Positions 7,585 through 19,707 of a stretch of 20,360 bases of DNA are shown one piece after another. The notes under the pieces were generated by a model. It had not been told where the DNA came from and did no database searches. It saw only the letters and a list, made by a program, of their open reading frames with translations. The stretch comes from a virus. Location of the stretch: IMG/VR virus record IMGVR_UViG_3300027741_003780, positions 1-20,360 of that record. One strand, given 5' to 3'. Position 1 is the first letter of the stretch. Every line of letters starts with the position of its first letter. The position numbers and the translations under genes are program-made.

Positions 7585-7959
7585 ATGTTGTTAGTAGAAT
7601 TTTTTGGACAAACAATGAATGTAAACAAGCATCTTCAAAAAAATCGTCAGGACAGCAACATTGATAACGAAGTGTTTTGGTTTTTGATTGACAACGACAG
7701 ATTGCACAAGCAGTATTTTCACTCTTTGGCAAAATATATTTTTAATCAACTGCAACATAAAGATATAGACAAAGCAGCTGATGTCAAAAAATTCATGCCC
7801 ATGGTTAAGAGTGGCTGTTTGGAGTACTACAATGAAAAAAAATTACCTGGGCATTTTGAAGACAATTTTGATAAAGAGGCTATGAAAGATCTATGTGACA
7901 AATTGTATGATCATTACATTGAAGATATCAAAAACAAACAATACCAAATAGACTTATGA
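7585..7959 (+). CDS. Unknown phage protein opening the accessory run, 124 residues
   Basis: No known family is recognised with confidence. The protein is soluble, charged and probably helical, with D-N-E-V-F-W-F-L-I-D-N-D-R-L-H-K-Q-Y, a K-F-M-P-M-V-K-S-G-C-L-E-Y-Y block and a C-terminal helix containing D-L-C-D-K-L-Y-D-H-Y. It starts M-L-L-V-E-F-F, with Glu5-Phe6 in the same position as in three downstream genes of this run (11095, 11981, 14130). A good ribosome-binding site (AAAAGGAAAC) and the late-promoter box at 7528 precede it. The stop overlaps the start of the 949-residue gene as ATGA, so the two are translationally coupled. Confidence 0.65.
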   Translation: MLLVEFFGQTMNVNKHLQKNRQDSNIDNEVFWFLIDNDRLHKQYFHSLAKYIFNQLQHKDIDKAADVKKFMPMVKSGCLEYYNEKKLPGHFEDNFDKEAMKDLCDKLYDHYIEDIKNKQYQIDL

Positions 7960-10805
7960 ACCTGTATGATTTGATCAAAAAAACGCCACTAAAAGAGGGA
8001 GGTAACGTATCCAGTCAAAGTCCTGGCTGGCAAGGAGTACCAGGCAAACATCAAGCACAAGAATTGGATCTACATGTTCATGATCGTAGTTATGTACAAG
8101 ATGTAGTAAGTCAGATGCTACATCTAATTAATGATGCATTTGCTCGGCAATTCAAAGAACCGCTATGGCATGAAAATTCTGTAGAGACTCAAAAGTTTTT
8201 AAGTGGCAGTACTTTTCAATTCATGGATAAGAAAATTTCTGATGAAGATTTTATTCGTGTTAAACCAAAAGTTGGAGATATTGATACCCAAGCCCCAGAC
8301 AAACATGCCAATACCATCAAACAATTTTTACAAAATAATTTAGGCAAAACACTTGGTACAGCAAAATTATTGGGCTACACTCCAGGTAATAGTCAATGGG
8401 TCAGTTTATGGGAAATTCAATTAAAAGATTTACCTGTAAAGATACAGATAGATTTTGAATATGGCGCACATGATGAAAAAACTGGATTACCAACAGAATG
8501 GCAATCATATAGCCATAGTAGCTCTTGGGATGATTTATCTCAAAATATCAAAGGGGTATTTCATAAATATTTAGATCGTGCATTGCCATATACGCATACT
8601 AGTACAAAATATGTAGCCAGAGTTCTTAAAAGAAGTACAAAAATTAGTGATGACCCAATTACTGATAGTGATTATAGTTTTGCTGTCAGCGGACCGGGCG
8701 GTGGTGGACTAAGTCAAAAATATGTTCCTTATGTAGATCCTGCTACTGGCAAACCTATGGAACGTGATGGCGTACCGGTCATGCAATTATTGGAACCATC
8801 TTCAAGAAAGTATGTACAAAATCTTAAACAGCAATTTGAAATTTTCTTTGGTGCCAAACCCAATGCTAAAGATCAACAGTTAAAAAATAGTTTTGTTGGT
8901 ACTGTGAGTTTGGCCAACAAATATTTAAATGATCAAGAAAAAGTTGAACTGTTCAATAGATTTCTTGGCATCTGTTTTGAGCCTGGTAGTCAAATGATCA
9001 GCAGAGACGACCCTGCCAAAGACAGAGATATCAAATTTGCTGCCATAGATTGGATGCTTGAACACATTAACTTACCCAATTCACCTGCATTAAGACAAAA
9101 AGCCATAGACACGGCCATGGCTTATGAAAAAGCCTTTATGGATAAAAAAACTACCAAAACTTCATCCTCGGTGACTGAAGCTGGTGAAGAATCCAATCAA
9201 GTTAAAGCACAACTGCGTAAAGGCATGCCGCATTTGAGAGATTTGAAACCAGCAGATTTTTTGGATCTGGTGGACGAGCTGCGTAGCGAAGGTGGTCGTT
9301 TCAAATTGCAAAATATACCCCTCAATGTCAAAATTGATGGGTTTGGTGGAAGATTTGGAAAAAATGCCGATGGTAAACCTTTTATGGGTACCAGTCGGAC
9401 TGAACCAAAATATGAAGCAGGGTTTGTAAAATATCATCAAGAAAAAGGCACAACAGATCCAGAAATTTTAAATCGTGCTGCTAACTTTGACAAGTTGTTT
9501 GATGAAATGATGAAGGCTATCAAAGTAGCTGATGCTAAACTAGGCTCTGACTTTTTAAATGATCGCCAAGTTACTTGTGAAGTATTGTTTTTACCTTTTG
9601 CTACCAAAACAGAAGAAGGGCAATTGAAATTTGTAGGTATTGAATATGATCAATTACCTAAAGGAGTAGATCTTGTACTAGTACCATTCCGTGTGGTCAA
9701 AGCCAGTACTGGTGAAGATGTTGATAACGCCGATGAAGTTATTGATAAATTAACTGGACTAGGTCAGAACGGTAGTGTCATGTTCATGAGCAACAGGTTA
9801 GCACAACAAGAAGCCTTGGATGTTACTGAGATTATCAATGTGCTAGATAACCTTGACGAATTAAAAAATATTGTAAGTGATACTGCAGGTAAACGAGATC
9901 GAACAAGTGTACAGTTACGTAGAGAAGTTGAAGAAAAATTAAAACCAGTTCAAATTGAATTGGAGCAAGCCATTGACAATGATCCAAATATTATTGGTAA
10001 GGATATGCTTGGGCAGGACTACGAAGGCATTGTTATTAACAGTCGGTTGGGCCCTATTAAAATTACCAGTCAAAGACAAAAAGATATCATCACAGCTAAA
10101 AACGCAGCCAAAAAAGCAGCTCGATCTGAACATAGTAGAGAAAATATTAATAAAACTGCGGTAGTGGCTATTGGAAGTTTTGTAGGCCATATAGGTCACG
10201 AAGAACTTTGGGACTATACTGTTAAGAAAGCAGAACAAGTTGGTGGCGACCCTTATCTGTTTATTGGAAATGCAGAAGGCAAAGACGATCCTATTCCTCC
10301 TTCAGTTAAAGTACAGACATGGCATAAACTATATCCAGAATACGCTAAGAATATCAGCACAGTACAAGAAGGCGGACAGCTAATACAAAAGATCAAACAC
10401 GAATTAATTAATCCACTACCAGGTAAACCTCCACGCTATGATAATATTATTATCATGGTTGGCGAAGATAGAGCAGGTATTAACATGCCTAATGCTTTAA
10501 TGAAAGCTGTGAACAAATTCCAAGGATATGAACACGTTAAAGTAACGCTTGATGTTACTCCACGTGGAACTGGAATCAGCGGAACTGCATTACGTAATAG
10601 TCTAAAAAATGATCCTCCAGAGGAAGCATTAGCCACATGGTCCAATGCCTTTGATGTAAACAAACTAGGTGTTGATTGGATCAAACACTTAATGGATTTG
10701 ACTCGTAAGGGCATGGGAATTAAAACAGATTTGGTTATTAGAGAAAATTGGGAACATGAAATGGCCTCTGCAATTCTGAAATTAATTGAAAATCAATTAA
10801 GATGA
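7956..10805 (+). CDS. 949-residue protein with three nucleotidyltransferase-like domains
   Basis: Large multidomain protein. Domain 1 (about 30-260) resembles a Pol-beta-type nucleotidyltransferase: S83-G84-S85-T86, then G-D108-I-D110, and a third acidic residue in I-Q-I-D166-F-E. Residues about 260-400 are unassigned. Domain 2 (about 410-720) resembles the covalent ligase/capping fold: motif I K459-I-D461-G462, a downstream C-E542-V-L-F like motif III, E690-G-I-V-I like motif IV, and I-K702-I like motif V. Domain 3 (about 732-900) resembles HxGH adenylyl- or cytidylyltransferases: G740-S-F-V-G-H745-I-G-H748 and ISGTALR (874-880), as in NMN adenylyltransferases. Substrates are unknown; NAD or RNA-end chemistry is possible. 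The N terminus, M-N-L-Y-D-L-I-K-K-T-P-L-K-E-G, contains a possible prohead-protease site (L-K-E). Coupled to both neighbours by ATGA. Domains 2 and 3 are better supported than domain 1. Confidence 0.7.
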   Translation: MNLYDLIKKTPLKEGGNVSSQSPGWQGVPGKHQAQELDLHVHDRSYVQDVVSQMLHLINDAFARQFKEPLWHENSVETQKFLSGSTFQFMDKKISDEDFIRVKPKVGDIDTQAPDKHANTIKQFLQNNLGKTLGTAKLLGYTPGNSQWVSLWEIQLKDLPVKIQIDFEYGAHDEKTGLPTEWQSYSHSSSWDDLSQNIKGVFHKYLDRALPYTHTSTKYVARVLKRSTKISDDPITDSDYSFAVSGPGGGGLSQKYVPYVDPATGKPMERDGVPVMQLLEPSSRKYVQNLKQQFEIFFGAKPNAKDQQLKNSFVGTVSLANKYLNDQEKVELFNRFLGICFEPGSQMISRDDPAKDRDIKFAAIDWMLEHINLPNSPALRQKAIDTAMAYEKAFMDKKTTKTSSSVTEAGEESNQVKAQLRKGMPHLRDLKPADFLDLVDELRSEGGRFKLQNIPLNVKIDGFGGRFGKNADGKPFMGTSRTEPKYEAGFVKYHQEKGTTDPEILNRAANFDKLFDEMMKAIKVADAKLGSDFLNDRQVTCEVLFLPFATKTEEGQLKFVGIEYDQLPKGVDLVLVPFRVVKASTGEDVDNADEVIDKLTGLGQNGSVMFMSNRLAQQEALDVTEIINVLDNLDELKNIVSDTAGKRDRTSVQLRREVEEKLKPVQIELEQAIDNDPNIIGKDMLGQDYEGIVINSRLGPIKITSQRQKDIITAKNAAKKAARSEHSRENINKTAVVAIGSFVGHIGHEELWDYTVKKAEQVGGDPYLFIGNAEGKDDPIPPSVKVQTWHKLYPEYAKNISTVQEGGQLIQKIKHELINPLPGKPPRYDNIIIMVGEDRAGINMPNALMKAVNKFQGYEHVKVTLDVTPRGTGISGTALRNSLKNDPPEEALATWSNAFDVNKLGVDWIKHLMDLTRKGMGIKTDLVIRENWEHEMASAILKLIENQLR

Positions 10806-11098
10806 AACAATACAAAATAACTTCAGAAAATATCAGTCAAAATAGTCCTGATGATTGTTATATCACACCCGAAGATCCTATCAATGAATTAAAAATTGCC
10901 AGTTACATGGACGGATTAGGATCACAGGTTAAACTAGCTGAATATCGTCAAAAAACTTTGGAACAAAAAAAGTTAAATAATATAGACAGGTATGGTATGA
11001 CCGGCAGTGAAAAAAGCGAATATATGAAAAAAAATAATATTCGTCCAGGTACACCCGCTTGGTTTGAACTATGGAGAGGTACGCCTACTAAATTATGA
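10802..11098 (+). CDS. Unknown small phage protein, 98 residues
   Basis: A charged, mostly helical 98-residue protein without a recognisable catalytic motif. The first 40 residues are polar (SENISQNSPDDCYITPEDP), then comes a helical segment (V-K-L-A-E-Y-R-Q-K-T-L-E-Q-K-K) and a C-terminal block R-P-G-T-P-A-W-F-E-L-W-R. I recall similar G-T-P-x-W-F endings in proteins of uncultured aquatic phages, but cannot name a family. Both ends overlap neighbours by ATGA (10802-10805 and 11095-11098), strong support for a real, coupled gene. Confidence 0.6.
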   Translation: MKQYKITSENISQNSPDDCYITPEDPINELKIASYMDGLGSQVKLAEYRQKTLEQKKLNNIDRYGMTGSEKSEYMKKNNIRPGTPAWFELWRGTPTKL

Positions 11099-11529
11099 GA
11101 GCAATAGAATTTATTATTGAAGATACAGTTTTACAAAATCAATTTGATATGATTGAAAACATGGTCAACTACTGGGCTGAATATCATGGAGTTGATAGCG
11201 ATGAGATATGGGAAGATTTGGAAAATGTGAATGACGAAGAATTGTTGAGCGAAGCAGAAGCATGGCAAAAATCATCTGGAAAAAATAAAAATGGTGGACT
11301 TAATAAAAAGGGTGTAGCTAGTTATAGGCGTAGCCATCCTGGTAGCAAACTACAAACTGCTGTTACTACCAAACCCAGCAAGCTCAAACCAGGATCAAAA
11401 GCAGCCAAACGTAGAAAAAGTTTTTGTGCTAGAATGAAGGGTATGAAAAAGCATAGAGCTGGCGCCAAAACCCGTCGAGATCCTAACAGCCGTATAAACA
11501 AAAGCCTACGCAAGTGGCATTGCGAATAA
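11095..11529 (+). CDS. Two-module basic protein with capsid-targeting-like N terminus
   Basis: The 144-residue protein has three parts. Residues 1-9 (MRAIEFIIE) resemble the T4 capsid-targeting peptide MKTYQEFIAE and end in an I-x-E site of the type cut by the gp21 prohead protease. Residues 10-60 form an acidic helical segment (N-Y-W-A-E-Y-H-G-V-D-S-D-E-I-W-E). Residues 62-144 form a very basic module: G-G-L-N-K-K-G-V-A-S-Y-R-R, then T-K-P-S-K-L-K-P-G-S-K, R-R-K-S-F-C-A-R-M-K-G-M and S-R-I-N-K-S-L-R-K-W-H-C. I recognise the last module from other aquatic phages and large DNA viruses as a conserved domain of unknown function with paired cysteines, possibly nucleic-acid binding. Start by ATGA overlap with the previous gene. 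Confidence 0.65.
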   Translation: MRAIEFIIEDTVLQNQFDMIENMVNYWAEYHGVDSDEIWEDLENVNDEELLSEAEAWQKSSGKNKNGGLNKKGVASYRRSHPGSKLQTAVTTKPSKLKPGSKAAKRRKSFCARMKGMKKHRAGAKTRRDPNSRINKSLRKWHCE

Positions 11530-11537
11530 ATATTGAT

Positions 11538-11978
11538 ATGGAAAAACTACACCAACTTGCTCGAATCGCATTTGCCAGCGAGTTTTCATTCTACATGAAA
11601 ACCCACGCATTTCACTGGAATGTAGAGGGCCAAGATTTTTACGAATATCACACATTGTTTGAAACCATTTATCAAGAAGTATTAGATAATATTGATGATT
11701 TTGCAGAAAAACTACGTAGTCTTGCAATCTATACACCTTATACACATCAAACACTTAGCATGTTGAGCAAGGTAGAAGATGAAAATTATGTGCCATCCAA
11801 GAATCAAATGGTGCAGGAACTGTTGATGGACAACGAAAAAATGGTCATCATACTGAAAAAATGCTATGATGCAGCTGAAGAAGCTGGTGAACATGGATTT
11901 AGTAATTTTTTAGCTGAACGTATGGATGCACACCGTAAACATGGTTGGTTTCTTAGGGCCAGCACCAAACAGGACTAA
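11538..11978 (+). CDS. dps: Dps-type ferritin-like DNA-protection protein
   Basis: A 146-residue Dps homologue. Dps forms a 12-subunit shell that oxidises Fe(II) with peroxide and protects DNA. The block A-F-H-W-N-V-E-G-Q-D-F-Y-E-Y-H-T-L-F-E is diagnostic. The ferroxidase ligands are present with the spacing of E. coli Dps (His51, His63, Asp67, Asp78, Glu82): His26, His38, Glu42 (conservative replacement), Asp53 and Glu57. The C terminus (S-T-K-Q-D) is short and there is no long basic N-terminal DNA-binding tail, so DNA binding is uncertain. ATG at 11538 is preferred because it gives a typical Dps N terminus. A GTG at 11514 would add eight residues and overlap the previous gene. Neither start has a clear ribosome-binding site. 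A late-promoter-like AATAAATA lies at 11525-11532. Confidence 0.88.
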   Translation: MEKLHQLARIAFASEFSFYMKTHAFHWNVEGQDFYEYHTLFETIYQEVLDNIDDFAEKLRSLAIYTPYTHQTLSMLSKVEDENYVPSKNQMVQELLMDNEKMVIILKKCYDAAEEAGEHGFSNFLAERMDAHRKHGWFLRASTKQD

Positions 11979-11980
11979 AC

Positions 11981-12364
11981 ATGAGAGCAAAAGAATTCGT
12001 AATTAACGAAGGTGCAAAAGCACACGGTACATTCAAAGGTATTGGTGCAAGTGCAGATCTAGCATTGCCAGGTGTATGGGTGCAAAGACAATTACGCAAT
12101 ACTGATCCGTATATGCAATATCGTTATGGGTTGGCCATGGCAGCGAGTCGTGCTGACGCAGCTGGGCATATTGAGTTTGAACAAGAAAGTGGATGGGCTG
12201 AAAATTTAACCATTGTGGGATACACAGCCCAAGATGAGGAAGTAATTAAAATGGCTGATAAGCTAATGGGTGTTACAGGCACTCAAGTTGCAGATAGCGC
12301 CAGCAGAGAATCACCAGGTGTAAACTCAACAAGCCCTGTGTCCAATTGGAACAACAAAAAATGA
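11981..12364 (+). CDS. Conserved phage protein with capsid-targeting-like N terminus
   Basis: A 127-residue protein beginning M-R-A-K-E-F-V-I-N-E-G, which aligns with the T4 capsid-targeting peptide and ends in I-N-E, a possible prohead-protease site. The first 18 bases of the gene differ from those of the gene at 11095 at only two positions. The rest has A-L-P-G-V-W-V, then L-R-N-T-D-P-Y-M-Q-Y-R-Y-G-L-A-M-A, and ends S-P-V-S-N-W-N-N. I have seen the N-T-D-P-Y-x-Q-Y-R pattern in proteins of uncultured aquatic phages, but no function is known to me. It starts 2 bases after the dps stop and overlaps the next start as ATGA. Head packaging is inference. Confidence 0.62.
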   Translation: MRAKEFVINEGAKAHGTFKGIGASADLALPGVWVQRQLRNTDPYMQYRYGLAMAASRADAAGHIEFEQESGWAENLTIVGYTAQDEEVIKMADKLMGVTGTQVADSASRESPGVNSTSPVSNWNNKK

Positions 12365-14133
12365 ACAACGAATTCAAAGCCAAACAATTCAAAGACACTA
12401 CAGTCTATACATTGGAAAGCGTCACAAGTGGCGTCACCAGTGCAGGTGTTGTGGCCAGTAATAGTGTAGCAATAGGAGGCGTTCAACAACGTCGCTCCAA
12501 GGATAGCATCATTGTTCAAGACTACGAAAAAAAAATTGAACCTACAAAACCAAGAAATTTTGTTGCTAAGAATGCTAAGATGGGCGGAGCCGGACAACAT
12601 AAAGATAAAAAGAAAGCTGAGAAACAAGGCGATGTAAAACACAAGAACAAACAATTTTCAATAGACGAGGATCATAGCACAGTTGGTATGAATGGTAACC
12701 CATTTGGCATGCACAGTTATGCCACTGCTGGAAAAAACACCAGTCGTTGGAGTGGTCAGGGTCGTGATGATTCTGTGCATGAGACTCCCATAGAGATGGA
12801 TCCCTCAGATCCAATGAACCCCATGATTTATGGTCATGGCGCCAACCCTGCTACACTAAAATATCGCATGATGAGAGCTACAGGTCAATTGAAAGACCTA
12901 ACACAACGAGCACAAACAGCCAGTGCTGTAGAATGGGAAATGATTGCCAAACAGTTTGATGAATTGACCATGAACATTGAACAAATACGTCATGGCATTG
13001 ATGAACTGGCCAAAAAACGCAAAAAAGGTGGCATTGGTTCAAGAGGTATTGATGCCCATATTGGTGAAGAAGTTGATGAAGGCTGGAAGTCAGCACTAGG
13101 TGGCGCGGCCCTTGCAGGCGCAATGGCACTAGGTGGTGGCGCTCGTGCTCAGTCATCGGGAGAAGACTTTTTACCAGATATTGTTGCTCATGTTACTTTT
13201 AAAGTCAATGGTAATACAGTTACCAAAGATATTAATCTAGGAACCAGTTTTAAGTCTCCAGGTGACGCATCAGCTGCACTAGAAAAATTTTTGAAATCTA
13301 AAGGTATTAAATTCTACGAGTTTAGCCTTGAACGCAAGGCCAACAAAGATTCTGACTATATAGAAAAAACTCCTGTATCAGCCACGGGATCAGGTTCCAT
13401 GGATAGCAGTCCAGCAAAAGCAGTTCCAGTCGGCGGTGATTACATGGCTAAAGAAGGTGTGGCGGAAGAGTGGAGCCAAAAGTACAAGAGCAGTATCAAT
13501 TGCAGTCACCCAAAAGGCTTCTCACAAAAGGCTCACTGTGCTGGTAAGAAGAAGCACACGGAAAGTATGATGACCATGGAAGCGACTTGTCCAGATTGCG
13601 GCATGTGTCAAACGCACGGCAACTTGAATGAAATCAAGAAAGGTGCTAAAGATTCAAATGGGTTTACAAAATGCTGGCCAGGACATCATGCTGCTGGTAC
13701 CAAAAAAGGTAAAAATGGCGGGCAAGTTCGTAACTGTGTGCCCAATGAAGGTGTCGTGGAAGGCCTGCTTGATTATACAAGAAGACAACAATTAATTCAG
13801 TACTTGGCAAAGAAACTGGATTGGGAAGTGAATTATTTGGAACTTGCCAGTGATCCTGAACTTATCAAATGGTATAAAGCTGCACAAGCAGGCAAAGATC
13901 CAATGAAAGCAGAACATGCAGATCACTATATCGAATCGCTATGCACAGAACTATCAGAAAAAATTCATGCCAATGCTCCAGTTAGCGCATATATTGATGA
14001 TTTCATGAAGGCAGCAAAGACTCCAAATGCCAAAGGTCATCATCAGTTTAAAAATAAAAGTGCAGAAAAAATAAGACAAATGGCTGTAGCAGCCAGTTAT
14101 AGTGCCAAAAATCCCAGCAAAAAGAAAAAATGA
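12361..14133 (+). CDS. 590-residue multi-module protein with Cys-rich segments
   Basis: ATG at 12361 is chosen because it overlaps the previous stop as ATGA; the frame also opens at a TTG at 12346. Modules in order: a basic N-terminal region, with M-N-N-E-F-K-A-K-Q-F at the start; a helical segment (about 155-225); E-V-D-E240-G-W followed by an Ala/Gly-rich hydrophobic stretch ending A-R-A-Q and a small domain with F-K-V-N-G-N-T-V-T-K and G-I-K-F-Y-E-F (about 270-330); GVAEE at 366-370; a basic Cys module (C-S-H-P-K-G-F-S-Q-K-A-H-C); C410-P-D-C413-G-M-C416-Q-T-H419, perhaps zinc-binding; T-K-C438-W-P-G-H-H; GVVEG at 464-468; and a C-terminal helical module ending H-H-Q-F-K-N-K and A-S-Y-S-A-K-N-P-S-K-K-K-K. 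No enzyme motif is seen. The G-V-x-E junctions look like prohead-protease sites. Confidence 0.65.
   Translation: MNNEFKAKQFKDTTVYTLESVTSGVTSAGVVASNSVAIGGVQQRRSKDSIIVQDYEKKIEPTKPRNFVAKNAKMGGAGQHKDKKKAEKQGDVKHKNKQFSIDEDHSTVGMNGNPFGMHSYATAGKNTSRWSGQGRDDSVHETPIEMDPSDPMNPMIYGHGANPATLKYRMMRATGQLKDLTQRAQTASAVEWEMIAKQFDELTMNIEQIRHGIDELAKKRKKGGIGSRGIDAHIGEEVDEGWKSALGGAALAGAMALGGGARAQSSGEDFLPDIVAHVTFKVNGNTVTKDINLGTSFKSPGDASAALEKFLKSKGIKFYEFSLERKANKDSDYIEKTPVSATGSGSMDSSPAKAVPVGGDYMAKEGVAEEWSQKYKSSINCSHPKGFSQKAHCAGKKKHTESMMTMEATCPDCGMCQTHGNLNEIKKGAKDSNGFTKCWPGHHAAGTKKGKNGGQVRNCVPNEGVVEGLLDYTRRQQLIQYLAKKLDWEVNYLELASDPELIKWYKAAQAGKDPMKAEHADHYIESLCTELSEKIHANAPVSAYIDDFMKAAKTPNAKGHHQFKNKSAEKIRQMAVAASYSAKNPSKKKK
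13454..13468 (+). repeat. 15-base linker repeat, copy 1
   Basis: AAGGTGTGGCGGAAG encodes part of E-G-V-A-E-E at a module boundary in the 590-residue protein. The identical 15 bases occur at 14956-14970 in the next gene, in the same reading frame. The GTG-GCG codons are GC-rich compared with the surrounding DNA. Confidence 0.7.
13748..13762 (+). repeat. 15-base linker repeat, diverged copy
   Basis: AAGGTGTCGTGGAAG differs from the copies at 13454 and 14956 at two positions (13/15). It encodes G-V-V-E at another module boundary of the same protein and lies in the same reading frame. Confidence 0.55.
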
Positions 14134-15677
14134 GATTACTAGAGTTCTCAGATAGTGATTATGAAATTCATAATCGAACCAAACTGGATCAAATTCTAGT
14201 TGAACTCTGTCACCAAATTATCAAAGGAAAACAGCATGATCCTATAAAATATGGGATGGTTGCGGCCTGTGTCTTAGACCCCAAAAACCGCACTGTATTC
14301 GGCATTAACGAGGCAGCCGAAAATAATAAAAGACGCCACGCAGAGAGAGTTGCCATGGATCGATATGTTGAACAACATGGAGAAATTCCCAAAGGCAGTA
14401 TTATCATAACCACATTAAGTCCGTGTAATGAATACAACACACATATGGCCGACGAACGTTATGGAGAAAGTTGCACTGATATCATCAACAACAGCATGGT
14501 CAGAAAAGTATACTGCGGATACCAAGACCCCAGTCAGGACAACGAGCATAATGAATACACTTTGGAACAAACCAGTAATAGTGATGTTAAAGAACTTTGT
14601 AAAAAATTTGCTGATACATTTTTGGATAATGCACACAAAAACTTATCAGAAAACACTGCGGCAGGTATCACCAAGGCGTTCAACAACCTAGGCGATCCTG
14701 TGTTTGCCAATCTGCAACGTGTGGCATTGTTGGCTATGCAAGGTAGACAAAGCGAAGCCGCTGGTCGACTGCAAACAGTTATCAAGGATGCTGATCCTGC
14801 TGTGCAGAAGAAAATTACGGATGCTGTGAACAACATCAAGCCTGTGACCATAAACGGTCGTGTGGCAGATTCCAGCACACTAGACAAAAGCAAACAGCAC
14901 AATGACTGGATCATAAACACATTCATTCCATGGGTGCAATCTTTATTGGGTCAGCAAGGTGTGGCGGAAGGAAAACAAACTGTTACTGAGTATAGAGATA
15001 GGATGTATCAATATCTCAAGAGCGTTGTTCCAACATGGCCAGACTATATTGTAAAAGATTGGCTATATGCTAACTATGCAAAAGGCGAAACATATAACAA
15101 AGAAAAAGGTTGGAGTTTTGCAAATGTTGGAAAAGATATTCCAATGATACTAAAGGACATGGGATTGAGTGTTGATACCAGGTGGCAGCTTGTTCCTAAT
15201 GTGAAGTTTACAATGGACATGTGGGGACCAAAAACCCTAAAACGCTTGCAAGCCAGGGCAGGCGGCAATGCTAAAAGCGCAGATCCAGCAGTACATATAC
15301 CTGCTAGAGATGCCGAACGTCATGCTACTCAAGCCGCACTTGCAAAGCAACAAGGTGGTGTAAGAAAAGAACCTGTTATTTTGATGAAAACAGCCGATGG
15401 GTATGAACTGTTAGAAGGGTGGCATAGAACAATACAACACTTTGCTATGTACCCAGATGGTTATATAGGTCCGGCTTATATAGCAGTGGCAGGCACTGTG
15501 CAAGAAAACTTCCACGACGGCAAGAATCCTGAGCGCAAAGGTCTAGCCAAACGTGTAGGCGTCAACACCAAAGCGTCAGTGAGCAGTCTACGCAACACAG
15601 CCAAACATTCATCAGGTGAGAAACAACGTATGGCTCACTGGTTAGCCAACATGAAAGCTGGAAGAGCAAAAAAATAA
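14130..15677 (+). CDS. Deaminase-like and ParB-like multi-module protein
   Basis: A 515-residue fusion. Residues about 15-165 form a cytidine-deaminase-like domain with R-R-H70-A-E72 (zinc ligand and proton-shuttle glutamate), T-L-S-P98-C99 and a downstream G-E-S-C115, then K-V-Y-C-G-Y. The two cysteines are 15 residues apart, instead of two in the common PCxxC form. Residues about 175-275 form a helical module, closed by Q-G277-V-A-E-G281. Residues about 285-460 hold a region with E-P-V-I-L and the ParB-like signature D-G-Y-E426-L-L-E-G-W-H-R433-T. The last 55 residues are a basic module (G-L-A-K-R-V-G-V-N, then S-S-G-E-K-Q-R-M-A-H-W-L) that I recall from cyanophage-like proteins. The start M-R-L-L-E-F resembles other packaged-protein candidates here. 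ATGA overlap with the previous gene. Free-nucleotide or nucleic-acid deamination is unproven. Confidence 0.68.
   Translation: MRLLEFSDSDYEIHNRTKLDQILVELCHQIIKGKQHDPIKYGMVAACVLDPKNRTVFGINEAAENNKRRHAERVAMDRYVEQHGEIPKGSIIITTLSPCNEYNTHMADERYGESCTDIINNSMVRKVYCGYQDPSQDNEHNEYTLEQTSNSDVKELCKKFADTFLDNAHKNLSENTAAGITKAFNNLGDPVFANLQRVALLAMQGRQSEAAGRLQTVIKDADPAVQKKITDAVNNIKPVTINGRVADSSTLDKSKQHNDWIINTFIPWVQSLLGQQGVAEGKQTVTEYRDRMYQYLKSVVPTWPDYIVKDWLYANYAKGETYNKEKGWSFANVGKDIPMILKDMGLSVDTRWQLVPNVKFTMDMWGPKTLKRLQARAGGNAKSADPAVHIPARDAERHATQAALAKQQGGVRKEPVILMKTADGYELLEGWHRTIQHFAMYPDGYIGPAYIAVAGTVQENFHDGKNPERKGLAKRVGVNTKASVSSLRNTAKHSSGEKQRMAHWLANMKAGRAKK
14956..14970 (+). repeat. 15-base linker repeat, copy 2
   Basis: AAGGTGTGGCGGAAG is identical to 13454-13468 and in the same frame (here Q-G-V-A-E-G). 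It lies between the helical module and the ParB-like region of the deaminase-like protein, again at a module boundary. Confidence 0.7.
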
Positions 15678-17034: not shown

Positions 17035-19707
17035 ATGAGCTATTGCGATGCCATCTGGAACCGTGAAACAGACATAGTCAATGTTGTTGAACGAGACCCT
17101 ATCAAGGGTAGAGTCTACAAAGAATATTCCGCCCGGTATGTATTTTATTATCCAGATGCCCGAGGAAAATACAAAAGTATTTTTGGTGAAAGTCTTGCCA
17201 AAGTTTCTACTAGGACTTTCAAAGAATACATAAAAGAACAGCGAATCCACAGCAACCACAGACTGTATGAAAGTGACATCAACCCTGTATTTAGGTGTCT
17301 AGAGGAAAATTATCTTGGCAAAGATACTCCCAATTTGAATGTGGCGTTTTTTGACATTGAAGTGGATTTTGATCCAGAGCGCGGCTATGCAAGTCCTGAT
17401 GATGCATTTATGCCAATCACTGCTATATCAGTACATCTGCAATGGTTAGACACGTTGATATGCCTAGCCGTACCCCCAAAAACACTCGCCATGGCACAGG
17501 CACAAGAACAGATTAAAGAATTTCCCAACACTATATTGTTTGAAACAGAACATGAAATGTTAGACACATTTCTTAATTTAATTGAAGATGCAGATGTGTT
17601 AAGTGGATGGAATAGTGAGGGTTTCGATATTCCGTATACTGTAAATAGAGTTATCAAAGTGTTAAGTAAAGAAGATACACGCAGATTTTGTTTATGGAAT
17701 CAATATCCTAAAAAAAGAGAATACGAAAAATACGGAAAGAAAGCAGTCACTTATGATTTGATTGGTCGCGTACACTTGGATAGCCTTGAACTATATAGAA
17801 AATATACTTACGAAGAACGTCATACCTATCGACTAGATGCAATTGGCGAGATGGAAATTGGTGAAAACAAAACAGTGTATGAAGGAACGTTAGATCAGTT
17901 ATATAATAATGATTTTAAAAAGTTCATTGAGTATAACAGACAAGATACTGCATTGTTGAATAAGTTAGATAAAAAATTAAAATTTATCAGTTTAGCCAAT
18001 ACTGTAGCCCATGAAAATACGGTATTGTTACAAACTACTATGGGGGCTGTGGCTGTTACTGAACAGGCCATTGTTAATGAAGCTCACCATCGAGGCATGA
18101 TGGTGCCCAGTCGTCCTAAAAGAGATCCTAATGTCAATAATCAAGCCGCAGGTGCCTATGTTGCTGTTCCTAAAAAAGGACTTCATGATTGGATTGGTAG
18201 TATGGACATTAACAGTTTGTATCCCAGTGTAATTCGTGCATTGAATATGGGCCCAGAAACTATTGTTGGTCAATTACGTCAAGATTATACTCGAGAAGAA
18301 ATTGAAACCAAAATGGCTAAAAACGGAGGCAAGTTTGCTGAAGCATGGGAAGGTAAGTTTGGTAGTAACGAATATGAATTTGTCATGAATCAGGATCGAG
18401 TCAATGACATTATTATTGATTGGGAAGACGGACGTACTGATGTCATGAGTGGTGCTCAAATTTATGAATTAATTTTTGAAAGTAATAATCCATGGATGAT
18501 CAGTGCCAACGGCACAATCTTCACTTATGAAAAAGAAGGGATTATTCCAGGATTATTAAAGCGATGGTATTCGGAGAGAAAGGACATGCAGGCCAAACTC
18601 AAAGAAGCAATCAAAGCAGAAAATAAAATTGAAGAAGAATATTGGGATAAGCGACAACTGGTAAAGAAGATTAACCTAAACAGTTTGTATGGTGCAATTT
18701 TGAATTCAGGGTGCCGATTTTTTGATAATAGAATTGGACAATCAACTACACTGACTGGTCGAGGTATTGCCAAGCATATGGCTGCTAAAATAAATGAAGT
18801 AATTACTGGGGATTATAACCATACTGGTAAGGCCGTTATATATGGAGATACTGACAGTGCCTATTTTAGCGCATATACATCATTGAAAAATGAAATTATC
18901 AAAGGTGAAATTCCATGGTCTAAAGATAGTATCGTTCAACTTTATGATACCATTGCTGAAGAAGTCAATACAACATTTCCACAGTTTATGCTGGATGCAC
19001 ATCATTGTCCAAAAACTCGAGGAGATGTTATTCGAGCTGGTCGAGAAGTTGTTGCTATCAAAGGTTTATTCATTACCAAAAAAAGGTATGCAGTTCTTTA
19101 TTATGATAAAGAAGGTAAACGCAGTGATATAGATGGAAAACCTGGAAAAATTAAAGCCATGGGGTTAGATCTTAAACGCAGTGATACTCCCGAATTTATG
19201 CAACAATTTTTGGAAGAAGTATTAACTCGAGTACTAAACGGCGCTGAAGAACAGGAAATTCTAGATATGATTACTACTTTTAGAACAGAATTCAAATCAC
19301 GACCTGGCTGGGAGAAAGGTAGTCCCAAACGTGCTAATAATATTGCCGCTTATCAAGCCAAAGAAGAAAAAATGGGCAAGGCCAATATGCCTGGACATGT
19401 CCGAGCAGCTATTAACTGGAATACGCTAAAACGCATGAATGGAGACAAGTACAGTCAACAAATTGTAGATGGCATGAAGGTAATTGTATGCAAAGTTAGA
19501 CCCAATGCACTAGGCTATACCAGTATTGCGTATCCAGTGGATGAATTAAGATTGCCCAAATGGTTCCAGGAATTGCCTTTTGATCATGCAGAGATGGAAG
19601 CTGTAATTATCAATAACAAAATTAAAAATCTCATCGGAGTACTGGAATGGCGACTGGAAGATACTTTGGATACCAACACATTCTCATCATTATTCTCATT
19701 TGATTAA
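17035..19707 (+). CDS. gp43: DNA polymerase, T4 gp43 type (family B)
   Basis: Complete 890-residue replicative polymerase with 3'-5' exonuclease; T4 gp43 has 898 residues. Exo I is F-F-D107-I-E109, Exo II L-S-G-W-N-S-E-G-F-D198, Exo III Y300-N-R-Q-D304. Polymerase motif A is S-M-D391-I-N-S-L-Y-P-S, motif B K545-I-N-L-N549-S-L-Y552-G, and motif C Y-G-D605-T-D607-S. K-K-R-Y follows. All catalytic residues are intact and correspond to RB69 Asp114/Glu116, Asp222, Asp327, Asp411, Lys560/Asn564/Tyr567 and Asp621/Asp623. The C terminus ends T-F-S-S-L-F-S-F-D, like the clamp-binding tail of T4 gp43. No intein or split is present. A good ribosome-binding site (AAAGGAAAAG) follows the candidate operator hairpin. 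gp45 lies 58 bases downstream. Confidence 0.97.
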   Translation: MSYCDAIWNRETDIVNVVERDPIKGRVYKEYSARYVFYYPDARGKYKSIFGESLAKVSTRTFKEYIKEQRIHSNHRLYESDINPVFRCLEENYLGKDTPNLNVAFFDIEVDFDPERGYASPDDAFMPITAISVHLQWLDTLICLAVPPKTLAMAQAQEQIKEFPNTILFETEHEMLDTFLNLIEDADVLSGWNSEGFDIPYTVNRVIKVLSKEDTRRFCLWNQYPKKREYEKYGKKAVTYDLIGRVHLDSLELYRKYTYEERHTYRLDAIGEMEIGENKTVYEGTLDQLYNNDFKKFIEYNRQDTALLNKLDKKLKFISLANTVAHENTVLLQTTMGAVAVTEQAIVNEAHHRGMMVPSRPKRDPNVNNQAAGAYVAVPKKGLHDWIGSMDINSLYPSVIRALNMGPETIVGQLRQDYTREEIETKMAKNGGKFAEAWEGKFGSNEYEFVMNQDRVNDIIIDWEDGRTDVMSGAQIYELIFESNNPWMISANGTIFTYEKEGIIPGLLKRWYSERKDMQAKLKEAIKAENKIEEEYWDKRQLVKKINLNSLYGAILNSGCRFFDNRIGQSTTLTGRGIAKHMAAKINEVITGDYNHTGKAVIYGDTDSAYFSAYTSLKNEIIKGEIPWSKDSIVQLYDTIAEEVNTTFPQFMLDAHHCPKTRGDVIRAGREVVAIKGLFITKKRYAVLYYDKEGKRSDIDGKPGKIKAMGLDLKRSDTPEFMQQFLEEVLTRVLNGAEEQEILDMITTFRTEFKSRPGWEKGSPKRANNIAAYQAKEEKMGKANMPGHVRAAINWNTLKRMNGDKYSQQIVDGMKVIVCKVRPNALGYTSIAYPVDELRLPKWFQELPFDHAEMEAVIINNKIKNLIGVLEWRLEDTLDTNTFSSLFSFD

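What the first reader, a model, noticed from the sequence alone, without database searches (positions are those of the whole stretch)
7956..10805. One protein with signatures of three different nucleotidyltransferase superfamilies
The 949-residue product carries a Pol-beta-like G-S-T...D-x-D plus a third acidic residue (G84, D108/D110, D166), ligase/capping-like motifs (K459-x-D-G, E690-G-I-V, K702) and an HxGH fold (H745-I-G-H748 with ISGTALR at 874-880). These folds are unrelated and each transfers a nucleotide in a different way. Their fusion suggests a single processing activity, such as end repair, tagging or capping of nucleic acid, or NAD-related modification of proteins or RNA. I know of phage NMN adenylyltransferases in NAD-salvage pathways, but not of this triple fusion as a characterised enzyme.
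Basis: partly seen in the sequence, partly recalled or inferred. Interest (0 to 1): 0.78.

Follow-up and report, generated by a model that had tools for sequence, protein, structure and literature searches.

The report
Phage head cargo of three nucleotidyltransferases
A T4-like phage from an environmental sample appears to make a chain of three nucleic-acid-type enzymes that is cut by its own head-building protease and packed inside the virus particle, so that the enzymes could enter the bacterium together with the viral DNA.

Summary
The 949-aa protein has three domains whose catalytic residues are invariant in up to 62 relatives and whose predicted folds match Pol-beta-type (moderately), ligase-type (moderately) and HIGH-type (strongly) nucleotidyltransferases.

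The "single fused enzyme" reading is probably wrong. The N-terminal domain is preceded by a short leader ending in [LIV]-x-E|GGN, the cleavage motif of the T4 gp21 prohead protease. A second site (VTE408|A) lies in the disordered linker before the ligase. Distant relatives begin either with M|GGN (24) or with a T4-internal-protein-like leader plus [LIV]xE|GGN (42), so both routes can give the same mature N-terminus. Most separate ligase genes carry their own leaders. Relatives' contigs encode gp21- and gp23-type proteins. Related HIGH proteins of cyanophages have such leaders and were detected in purified virions by mass spectrometry (literature).

Best explanation: a capsid-targeted polyprotein, cut into POLB and LIG-HIGH enzymes in the prohead and ejected with the DNA, acting on nucleic-acid ends. 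Packaging and processing are well supported by inference but unproven for this protein. The substrate (DNA or RNA) is unresolved.

It is a new variant of a known kind (T4 internal head proteins).

The parts
7956..7997 (+). leader peptide, residues 1-14 (MNLYDLIKKTPLKE), capsid-targeting-type; predicted prohead protease cut after E14, before G15-G16-N17
   Evidence: [LIV]xE|GGN in 52/52 EGGN-containing fused representatives and in 42 of 68 distinct sequences of a wider set, where another 24 start M|GGN; residues 1-12 pLDDT<50
7998..9179 (+). POLB: Pol-beta-superfamily nucleotidyltransferase domain, residues 15-408 (G84-S85, D108, D110, D166, E168)
   Evidence: motif conservation; AF2 pLDDT 91; pol mu Z 8.8; phrog_19290 E 2.7e-29
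9171..9200 (+). disordered linker (residues 406-415) with second predicted prohead protease site VTE408|A409
   Evidence: site present in 54/61 linkers, shuffled mean 6.6, max 15 in 1000 shuffles; pLDDT<50 at 406-415
9201..10115 (+). LIG: ligase-type covalent nucleotidyltransferase domain, residues 416-720 (K459xDG, E542, E690G, K702); no OB-fold domain
   Evidence: motifs 62/62; Foldseek to DNA/RNA ligases; standalone LIG genes mostly end shortly after motif V
10152..10760 (+). HIGH: HxGH nucleotidyltransferase domain, residues 733-935 (H745-I-G-H748; ISGTALR 874-880)
   Evidence: PPAT Z 12.9, NadM 12.2, NMNAT 12.0; phrog_3041 cytidyltransferase E 3.6e-10
10740..10802 (+). C-terminal tail ending MASAILKLIENQLR; relatives have longer tails with further VAE|-type sites and similar last residues
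   Evidence: tails 114 [LIV]xE[AGS] sites vs 47.6 shuffled
11095..11529 (+). neighbouring small protein with a similar leader (MRAIEFIIE|D), DUF6321 C-terminus; candidate co-packaged protein
11981..12364 (+). neighbouring small protein with a similar leader (MRAKEFVINE|G); candidate co-packaged protein

Best explanation
The gene encodes a head-internal (virion-packaged) polyprotein of a T4-like phage. Inferred steps: (1) the N-terminal leader (residues 1-14) targets the precursor into the assembling prohead, as the capsid-targeting sequences of T4 internal proteins do; (2) the phage's gp21-type prohead protease cuts after E14 and after E408, releasing a Pol-beta-type nucleotidyltransferase that starts Gly-Gly-Asn, and a ligase-HIGH two-domain enzyme; (3) both stay in the capsid and are ejected with the DNA; (4) in the host they act together at once on nucleic-acid ends: the Pol-beta domain adds nucleotides, the ligase domain forms a lysyl-NMP intermediate at K459 and activates or joins ends, and the HIGH domain makes or uses an adenylylated cofactor such as NAD. 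Repair of breaks or gaps in the incoming genome is slightly favoured over repair of host-cleaved tRNA (my estimate: DNA 0.5, RNA 0.35, other 0.15). Shown here: domains, conserved catalytic residues, the position and conservation of the cleavage motifs, and the presence of gp21-type protease genes in relatives' contigs. Inferred: packaging, cutting, ejection and substrate.
For: (a) 52/52 EGGN leaders in fused representatives have L/I/V at P3 before E|GGN. In a wider, more diverse set of 68 distinct sequences, 24 begin M|GGN and 42 end a leader with [LIV]xE|GGN; 2 differ. Both routes would leave GGN as the mature N-terminus, Met removal before Gly being established knowledge. (b) Leaders resemble T4 internal-protein capsid-targeting sequences (MKTFKEYLVE|, MRAREFLIE|); gp21 cuts after L/I-X-E, and the first 10 residues of IPIII were the only ones required for packaging (PMC9026906). 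(c) The POLB/LIG linker has a site in 54/61 (shuffled mean 6.6); the LIG/HIGH junction in 0/61. Site density per 100 aa: 2.64 in the linker, 0.04/0.12/0.03 inside POLB/LIG/HIGH. The two disordered segments of the N-domain model, 1-12 and 406-415, lie at the two sites. (d) Most separate LIG genes have their own leader just before the same start (MKSFKEYLKE|D, MISFKEFIAE|S, MTTFKEYLVE|S). (e) Peptidase_S77 (gp21) and Gp23 are in the same 9 of 14 long contigs with the fused gene; gp23 there has L[AS]E|[SA] in its N-terminal region. (f) HIGH relatives of S-SM1 (PMC3037559), S-SZBM1 (PMC9146016), S-SCSM1 (PMC9602691) and S-CREM2 (PMC10665884) were found in purified virions; three were read here and begin MKKFSAFLNE|A, MRFRQFIIE|A, MKNFSSFLTE|A (homology). 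(g) Gene order and fusion states link the domains.
Against: No mass spectrometry exists for this phage, and I found no report of POLB or LIG in any virion. The virion HIGH relatives are distant from the window's HIGH domain (hhalign probability 59-92%). In S-CREM2, leader-type sites versus virion detection over 32 genes was not significant (Fisher p 0.15). About a third of the wider POLB set has no leader (M|GGN) and may act from the cytoplasm; several separate HIGH genes lack a leader too. The ligase domain has no OB-fold, so it is not an ordinary DNA ligase and may not ligate alone. The Pol-beta fold match is moderate (Z 8.8). The window fragment itself holds no recognised gp21 gene in its 20 kb.
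Confidence: 0.66

Rival explanations
1. Cytoplasmic trifunctional enzyme: the three domains work as one intact polypeptide on one substrate.
For: Fused in 163 of the 174 loci that held a hit (loci overlap and include redundant contigs), all catalytic residues conserved.
Against: Leader and linker carry prohead-protease sites at exactly the domain borders; POLB often stands alone or is split from LIG; the linker is disordered.
Confidence: 0.12
2. RNA (tRNA) repair kit: POLB restores lost nucleotides and LIG re-joins tRNAs cut by host anticodon nucleases, with the HIGH domain supplying NAD for end clean-up; packaged or not. This differs from the best explanation in substrate only and is not exclusive with packaging.
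For: Pol-beta NTase plus RNA ligase pairing is the described RlaP/RNA-ligase theme in large phages (PMC7824862); absence of an OB-fold is unlike classical DNA ligases; Foldseek also lists an archaeal RNA ligase and viral RNA ligases.
Against: No RlaP or RNA_ligase Pfam hit in any of 58/62 members at E<=0.05; best structural neighbours of POLB are DNA polymerase mu/lambda/beta and TdT; I know of no report that such phage RNA-repair enzymes are packaged.
Confidence: 0.3
3. NAD metabolism cargo: the HIGH domain is an NMN adenylyltransferase that restores NAD after host NADase defence, and POLB/LIG are accessory.
For: Fold closest to PPAT, NadM and NMNAT; cyanophage virion relatives have been called NMNAT-like (PMC9602691).
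Against: Does not explain invariant POLB and ligase catalytic residues; NMNAT-specific residues not established; Pfam gives only a weak FAD_syn N-terminal match (best 4e-5).
Confidence: 0.15
4. Degenerate enzymes kept as structural or scaffold-binding head proteins.
For: Many T4-like internal proteins have no known activity (general knowledge).
Against: Catalytic motifs of all three domains are invariant across sequences as low as about 25-40% identical.
Confidence: 0.04

Closest known systems
T4 internal head proteins (IPI-III, Alt) with capsid-targeting sequences cut by gp21
   Same: short N-terminal leader, cut after L/I-x-E, carried in phages with gp21/gp23-type heads
   Different: T4 cargoes are small internal proteins or an ADP-ribosyltransferase; here the cargo is a multi-enzyme polyprotein with an internal site between enzymes, and its packaging is unproven
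T4-like cyanophage cytidylyltransferase (T4-GC190, phrog_3041), a virion protein
   Same: HIGH domain related to the window's, near gp41 in most genomes read, leader with [LIV]xE|A in those detected in virions and read here
   Different: separate gene, often next to a DUF6267 gene instead of POLB-LIG
Xanthomonas phage X1 and Stenotrophomonas phage YB07 gene clusters
   Same: POLB, LIG and a HIGH-type gene in the same order near gp41 and a baseplate hub gene
   Different: separate genes, leaderless POLB (M|GGN), an extra gene of unknown function between POLB and LIG; their HIGH genes are only superfamily-level matches
RlaP Pol-beta NTase with RNA ligase in large phages (PMC7824862)
   Same: Pol-beta NTase associated with a ligase
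   Different: no Pfam match to RlaP or RNA_ligase families (absence is inconclusive); no reported packaging
Polyvalent proteins injected by phages (Iyer et al. 2017, PMC5512222)
   Same: several enzymatic domains in one phage polypeptide thought to enter the host
   Different: here domain borders coincide with prohead-protease sites; paper known from its abstract only

Membership tests
T4-type capsid-targeted internal head protein | N-terminal leader ending in the gp21 motif L/I-x-E (V also seen here) | tested here: met
   PLKE|GGN in the window; 52/52 and 42/42 leader-bearing relatives with a hydrophobic L/I/V-type residue at P3
T4-type capsid-targeted internal head protein | phage encodes a gp21-type (Peptidase_S77) protease and gp23-type capsid | tested here: inconclusive
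   met in 9 of 14 long contigs of relatives; the window record is a 20-kb fragment
T4-type capsid-targeted internal head protein | present and cleaved in the virion | not testable with these tools
   no proteomics for this phage; HIGH relatives are in virions (PMC3037559, PMC9146016, PMC9602691, PMC10665884)
Pol-beta superfamily nucleotidyltransferase | G-S, D-x-D and third acidic residue | tested here: met
   G84, S85, D108, D110, D166 invariant
Pol-beta superfamily nucleotidyltransferase | palm fold | tested here: met
   pol mu Z 8.8, rmsd 3.9 over 182 residues; moderate
RlaP (PF10127) NTase | match to the family profile | tested here: inconclusive
   no match in 58 members at E<=0.05; remote kinship not excluded
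Ligase/capping covalent nucleotidyltransferase superfamily | motifs I (KxDG), III, IV (EG), V (K) | tested here: met
   K459, E542, E690-G691, K702 62/62
Ligase/capping covalent nucleotidyltransferase superfamily | NTase-domain fold | tested here: met
   Foldseek to DNA ligase IV 1.9e-4, archaeal DNA ligase 8.6e-4, RNA ligase 5.6e-3, ASFV ligase 5.6e-3; moderate
Classical DNA ligase or mRNA-capping enzyme | C-terminal OB-fold with motif VI | tested here: not met
   about 30 residues separate K702 from the HIGH domain; 10 of 11 standalone LIG genes read end shortly after motif V
HIGH-superfamily nucleotidyltransferase | HxGH and IS-x-T-x-x-R motifs, Rossmann-type fold | tested here: met
   H745, H748, R880 62/62; Z 12-13 to PPAT, NadM, NMNAT
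NMN adenylyltransferase | NMN specificity | not testable with these tools
   PPAT, NMNAT and FAD synthetase are all near in fold

The most novel reading that the evidence does not exclude
T4-like phages of fresh and marine waters use the prohead protease to process a cargo polyprotein: one precursor brings a Pol-beta polymerase, a minimal OB-less ligase and a HIGH nucleotidyltransferase (plus, in relatives, long tails with further VAE|G-type sites) into the head, is cut into separate enzymes there and is injected as a ready-made nucleic-acid repair kit at time zero of infection.
Probability: 0.5. Interest if true: 0.85.

Novelty: new variant of a known kind. Interest (0 to 1): 0.72.

Why it matters
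It gives a testable function class to a large virus family (236 Pol-beta relatives confirmed in one scan of IMG/VR; none by tblastn among the bacterial and archaeal contigs that matched the patterns) that databases list as unknown. If right, some phages deliver polymerase, ligase and adenylyltransferase activities with their DNA, before any gene is expressed, which bears on how incoming genomes survive nucleases and other early defences. It would also show the prohead protease acting as a polyprotein-processing enzyme for enzymatic cargo, and it offers a sequence rule (leader ending in [LIV]xE|) for finding other packaged enzymes.

Tried and rejected
Pfam on the whole protein and on 58/62 members: nothing above the curated cut-off for POLB or LIG; weak FAD_syn for HIGH. 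PDB sequence searches with single protein and profiles: nothing useful. Cellular homologues: 64 pattern matches in genome contigs, none a relative by tblastn. RlaP membership: no profile match, left inconclusive. DUF6267 (ligase-type motifs, next to the cyanophage HIGH gene) as a direct homologue of LIG: hhalign probability 0.2%, not supported. The X1 HIGH-type gene is not a close homologue of the window's HIGH domain (hhalign 0.5%), though Pfam puts it in CTP_transf_like. Idea that only phages without gp21 have M|GGN forms: rejected, both kinds have Peptidase_S77. Leader versus virion detection over a block of S-CREM2 genes: not significant. Supplementary virion tables for Campylobacter phage IBB_35, a relative of the leader-bearing Campylobacter POLB phages, could not be read.

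Full report
What is in the sequence. ORF 7956-10805 encodes 949 aa. The window is a 20,360-base IMG/VR virus record with T4-like genes such as a gp43-type DNA polymerase (17035-19707, named from its sequence). PHROG profiles split the protein into phrog_19290 (53-374, unknown), phrog_12709 (422-604, unknown) and phrog_3041 (728-885, cytidyltransferase). Pfam has no significant match.

Conservation. Ten relatives were found with the whole protein and many more with the ligase and Pol-beta alignments. Of 174 loci with a hit, 163 hold POLB, LIG and HIGH in one ORF (many loci come from the same contigs, and there are 61 representatives at 90% identity).

Structure. AlphaFold2 models have mean pLDDT 91 (residues 1-415) and 89.5 (416-949). 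The N-domain matches family-X DNA polymerases and TUTases moderately (Z 8.8 and 8.3). The ligase region matches DNA and RNA ligases. The C-terminal region matches PPAT, NadM and NMNAT clearly (Z 12-13). All three assigned folds are therefore supported, the first two moderately.

It looks like a processed polyprotein. Every representative with an EGGN sequence has L, I or V two residues before the E (52/52). T4 gp21 cuts after L/I-x-E, and only the first ten residues of T4 IPIII were required for packaging (PMC9026906). The POLB/LIG linker contains a [LIV]xE[AGS] site in 54 of 61 representatives against 6.6 expected from shuffled linkers, while the LIG/HIGH junction has none. Such sites are rare inside the domains. 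In the window they are K13-E14|G15 and T407-E408|A409, and the only stretches of the N-domain model with pLDDT under 50 are 1-12 and 406-415.

The strongest single argument is the N-terminus of distant relatives, most of them unfused. Of 68 distinct sequences, 24 start M|GGN (all unfused), 42 have a leader ending [LIV]xE|GGN (23 unfused, 19 fused) and 2 differ. Many leaders look like T4 internal-protein leaders (MKTFKEYLVE, MKSFKQYILE, MRAREFLIE). Removal of Met before Gly and cutting after Glu would give the same mature protein. Most separate LIG genes carry their own leader directly before the position where the fused linker would be cut.

The machinery is present. Peptidase_S77 and Gp23 were found in the same 9 of 14 long contigs with the fused gene. 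In these contigs gp23 has a L[AS]E|[SA] sequence in its N-terminal region and gp21 has VLE|S near its own N-terminus. Among contigs with leader-type POLB, 9 of 15 have Peptidase_S77, as do 12 of 15 of the other set (mostly M|GGN), so the protease does not separate the two forms.

Related virion evidence from the literature. T4-GC190, the cyanophage cytidylyltransferase related to the HIGH domain, was detected in S-SM1 virions (PMC3037559), and related proteins in S-SZBM1 (PMC9146016), S-SCSM1 (PMC9602691) and S-CREM2 (PMC10665884). Three of these read here begin with a leader: MKKFSAFLNE|A, MRFRQFIIE|A and MKNFSSFLTE|A. The authors of two of those papers note that carry-over into the preparation is also possible. 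In S-SZBM1 the neighbouring DUF6267 protein has no leader and is not mentioned in the part of the paper searched.

Genomic context. In Xanthomonas phage X1 and Stenotrophomonas phage YB07, POLB, LIG and a HIGH-type gene are separate and in the same order near gp41. In Melnitz, Pelagibacter phage HTVC008M and Stenotrophomonas phage DLP_6, a DUF6267 gene, with K-x-D-G and E-G-[FY]-V motifs, has a leader and sits near a HIGH gene. Intermediate fusion states exist in IMG/VR. The trio is therefore a functional unit whose fusion is one of several forms.

Mechanism. I propose packaging, cutting, ejection and immediate action on nucleic-acid ends. Only the sequence and predicted-structure facts are shown; the steps are inferred. 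The absence of an OB-fold makes LIG unlike classical DNA ligases, so it may need POLB or HIGH as a partner, or may be an RNA-type enzyme. DNA is slightly favoured because the cargo would travel with the genome and POLB is nearest family-X polymerases; RNA repair remains a serious rival because Pol-beta NTases are described partners of phage RNA ligases (PMC7824862).

Verdict. Real, conserved and more interesting than a triple fusion: a probable head-cargo polyprotein. It is a new variant of a known kind, not categorically new, because T4 internal proteins define the delivery route.

Noticed in passing
window 14130-15677: 515-aa protein with a cytidine/dCMP deaminase zinc-binding domain (PF00383, E 2.6e-11), an N-terminus MRLLEF resembling the leaders, and an internal GVAE|G site at residue 277; possibly another packaged enzyme.
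   Followed up: partly
window 12346-14133: 595-aa protein of unknown function with two GVAE/GVVE sites (residues 371, 469), resembling the long tails of the fused relatives.
   Followed up: partly
window 11095-11529 and 11981-12364: Small ORFs starting MRAIEFIIE|D and MRAKEFVINE|G, typical of capsid-targeting leaders; the first ends in DUF6321.
   Followed up: partly
window 11514-11978: Ferritin-like/Dps protein (PF00210 E 2.8e-18) inside the cargo-rich region.
   Followed up: no
L003, L007, L008, L009, L010 (C-terminal 300-700 aa): Relatives carry long, variable tails, several with repeated QGVAEG spacers, and a conserved last stretch like MA..I..LIEN; tails have 114 [LIV]xE[AGS] sites against 47.6 shuffled.
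   Followed up: partly
L196:3329-4576, L202:3998-5230, L203:4001-5236: DUF6267 (PF19782) has K-[WY]-D-G, E-G-[FY]-V and K-[LF]-V motifs and looks like an unrecognised ligase-type nucleotidyltransferase, with matches in 410 phage records, beside or near the cytidyltransferase in those read; leader present in Melnitz, HTVC008M and DLP_6 but not in the cyanophages read.
   Followed up: partly
L196:2251-3336, L202:2947-4005, L204:3047-3880: Genes next to DUF6267 with a P-K-T-D...(S)-x-K pattern that by eye suggests a PD-(D/E)xK nuclease; the first two have leaders (MQGFKTFLSE|A, MLSFTGYSNLSE|A).
   Followed up: no
L202:5742-6404: P-loop kinase-like gene (GGPGSGKT) with leader MIPFILKE|G in the HTVC008M cluster.
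   Followed up: no
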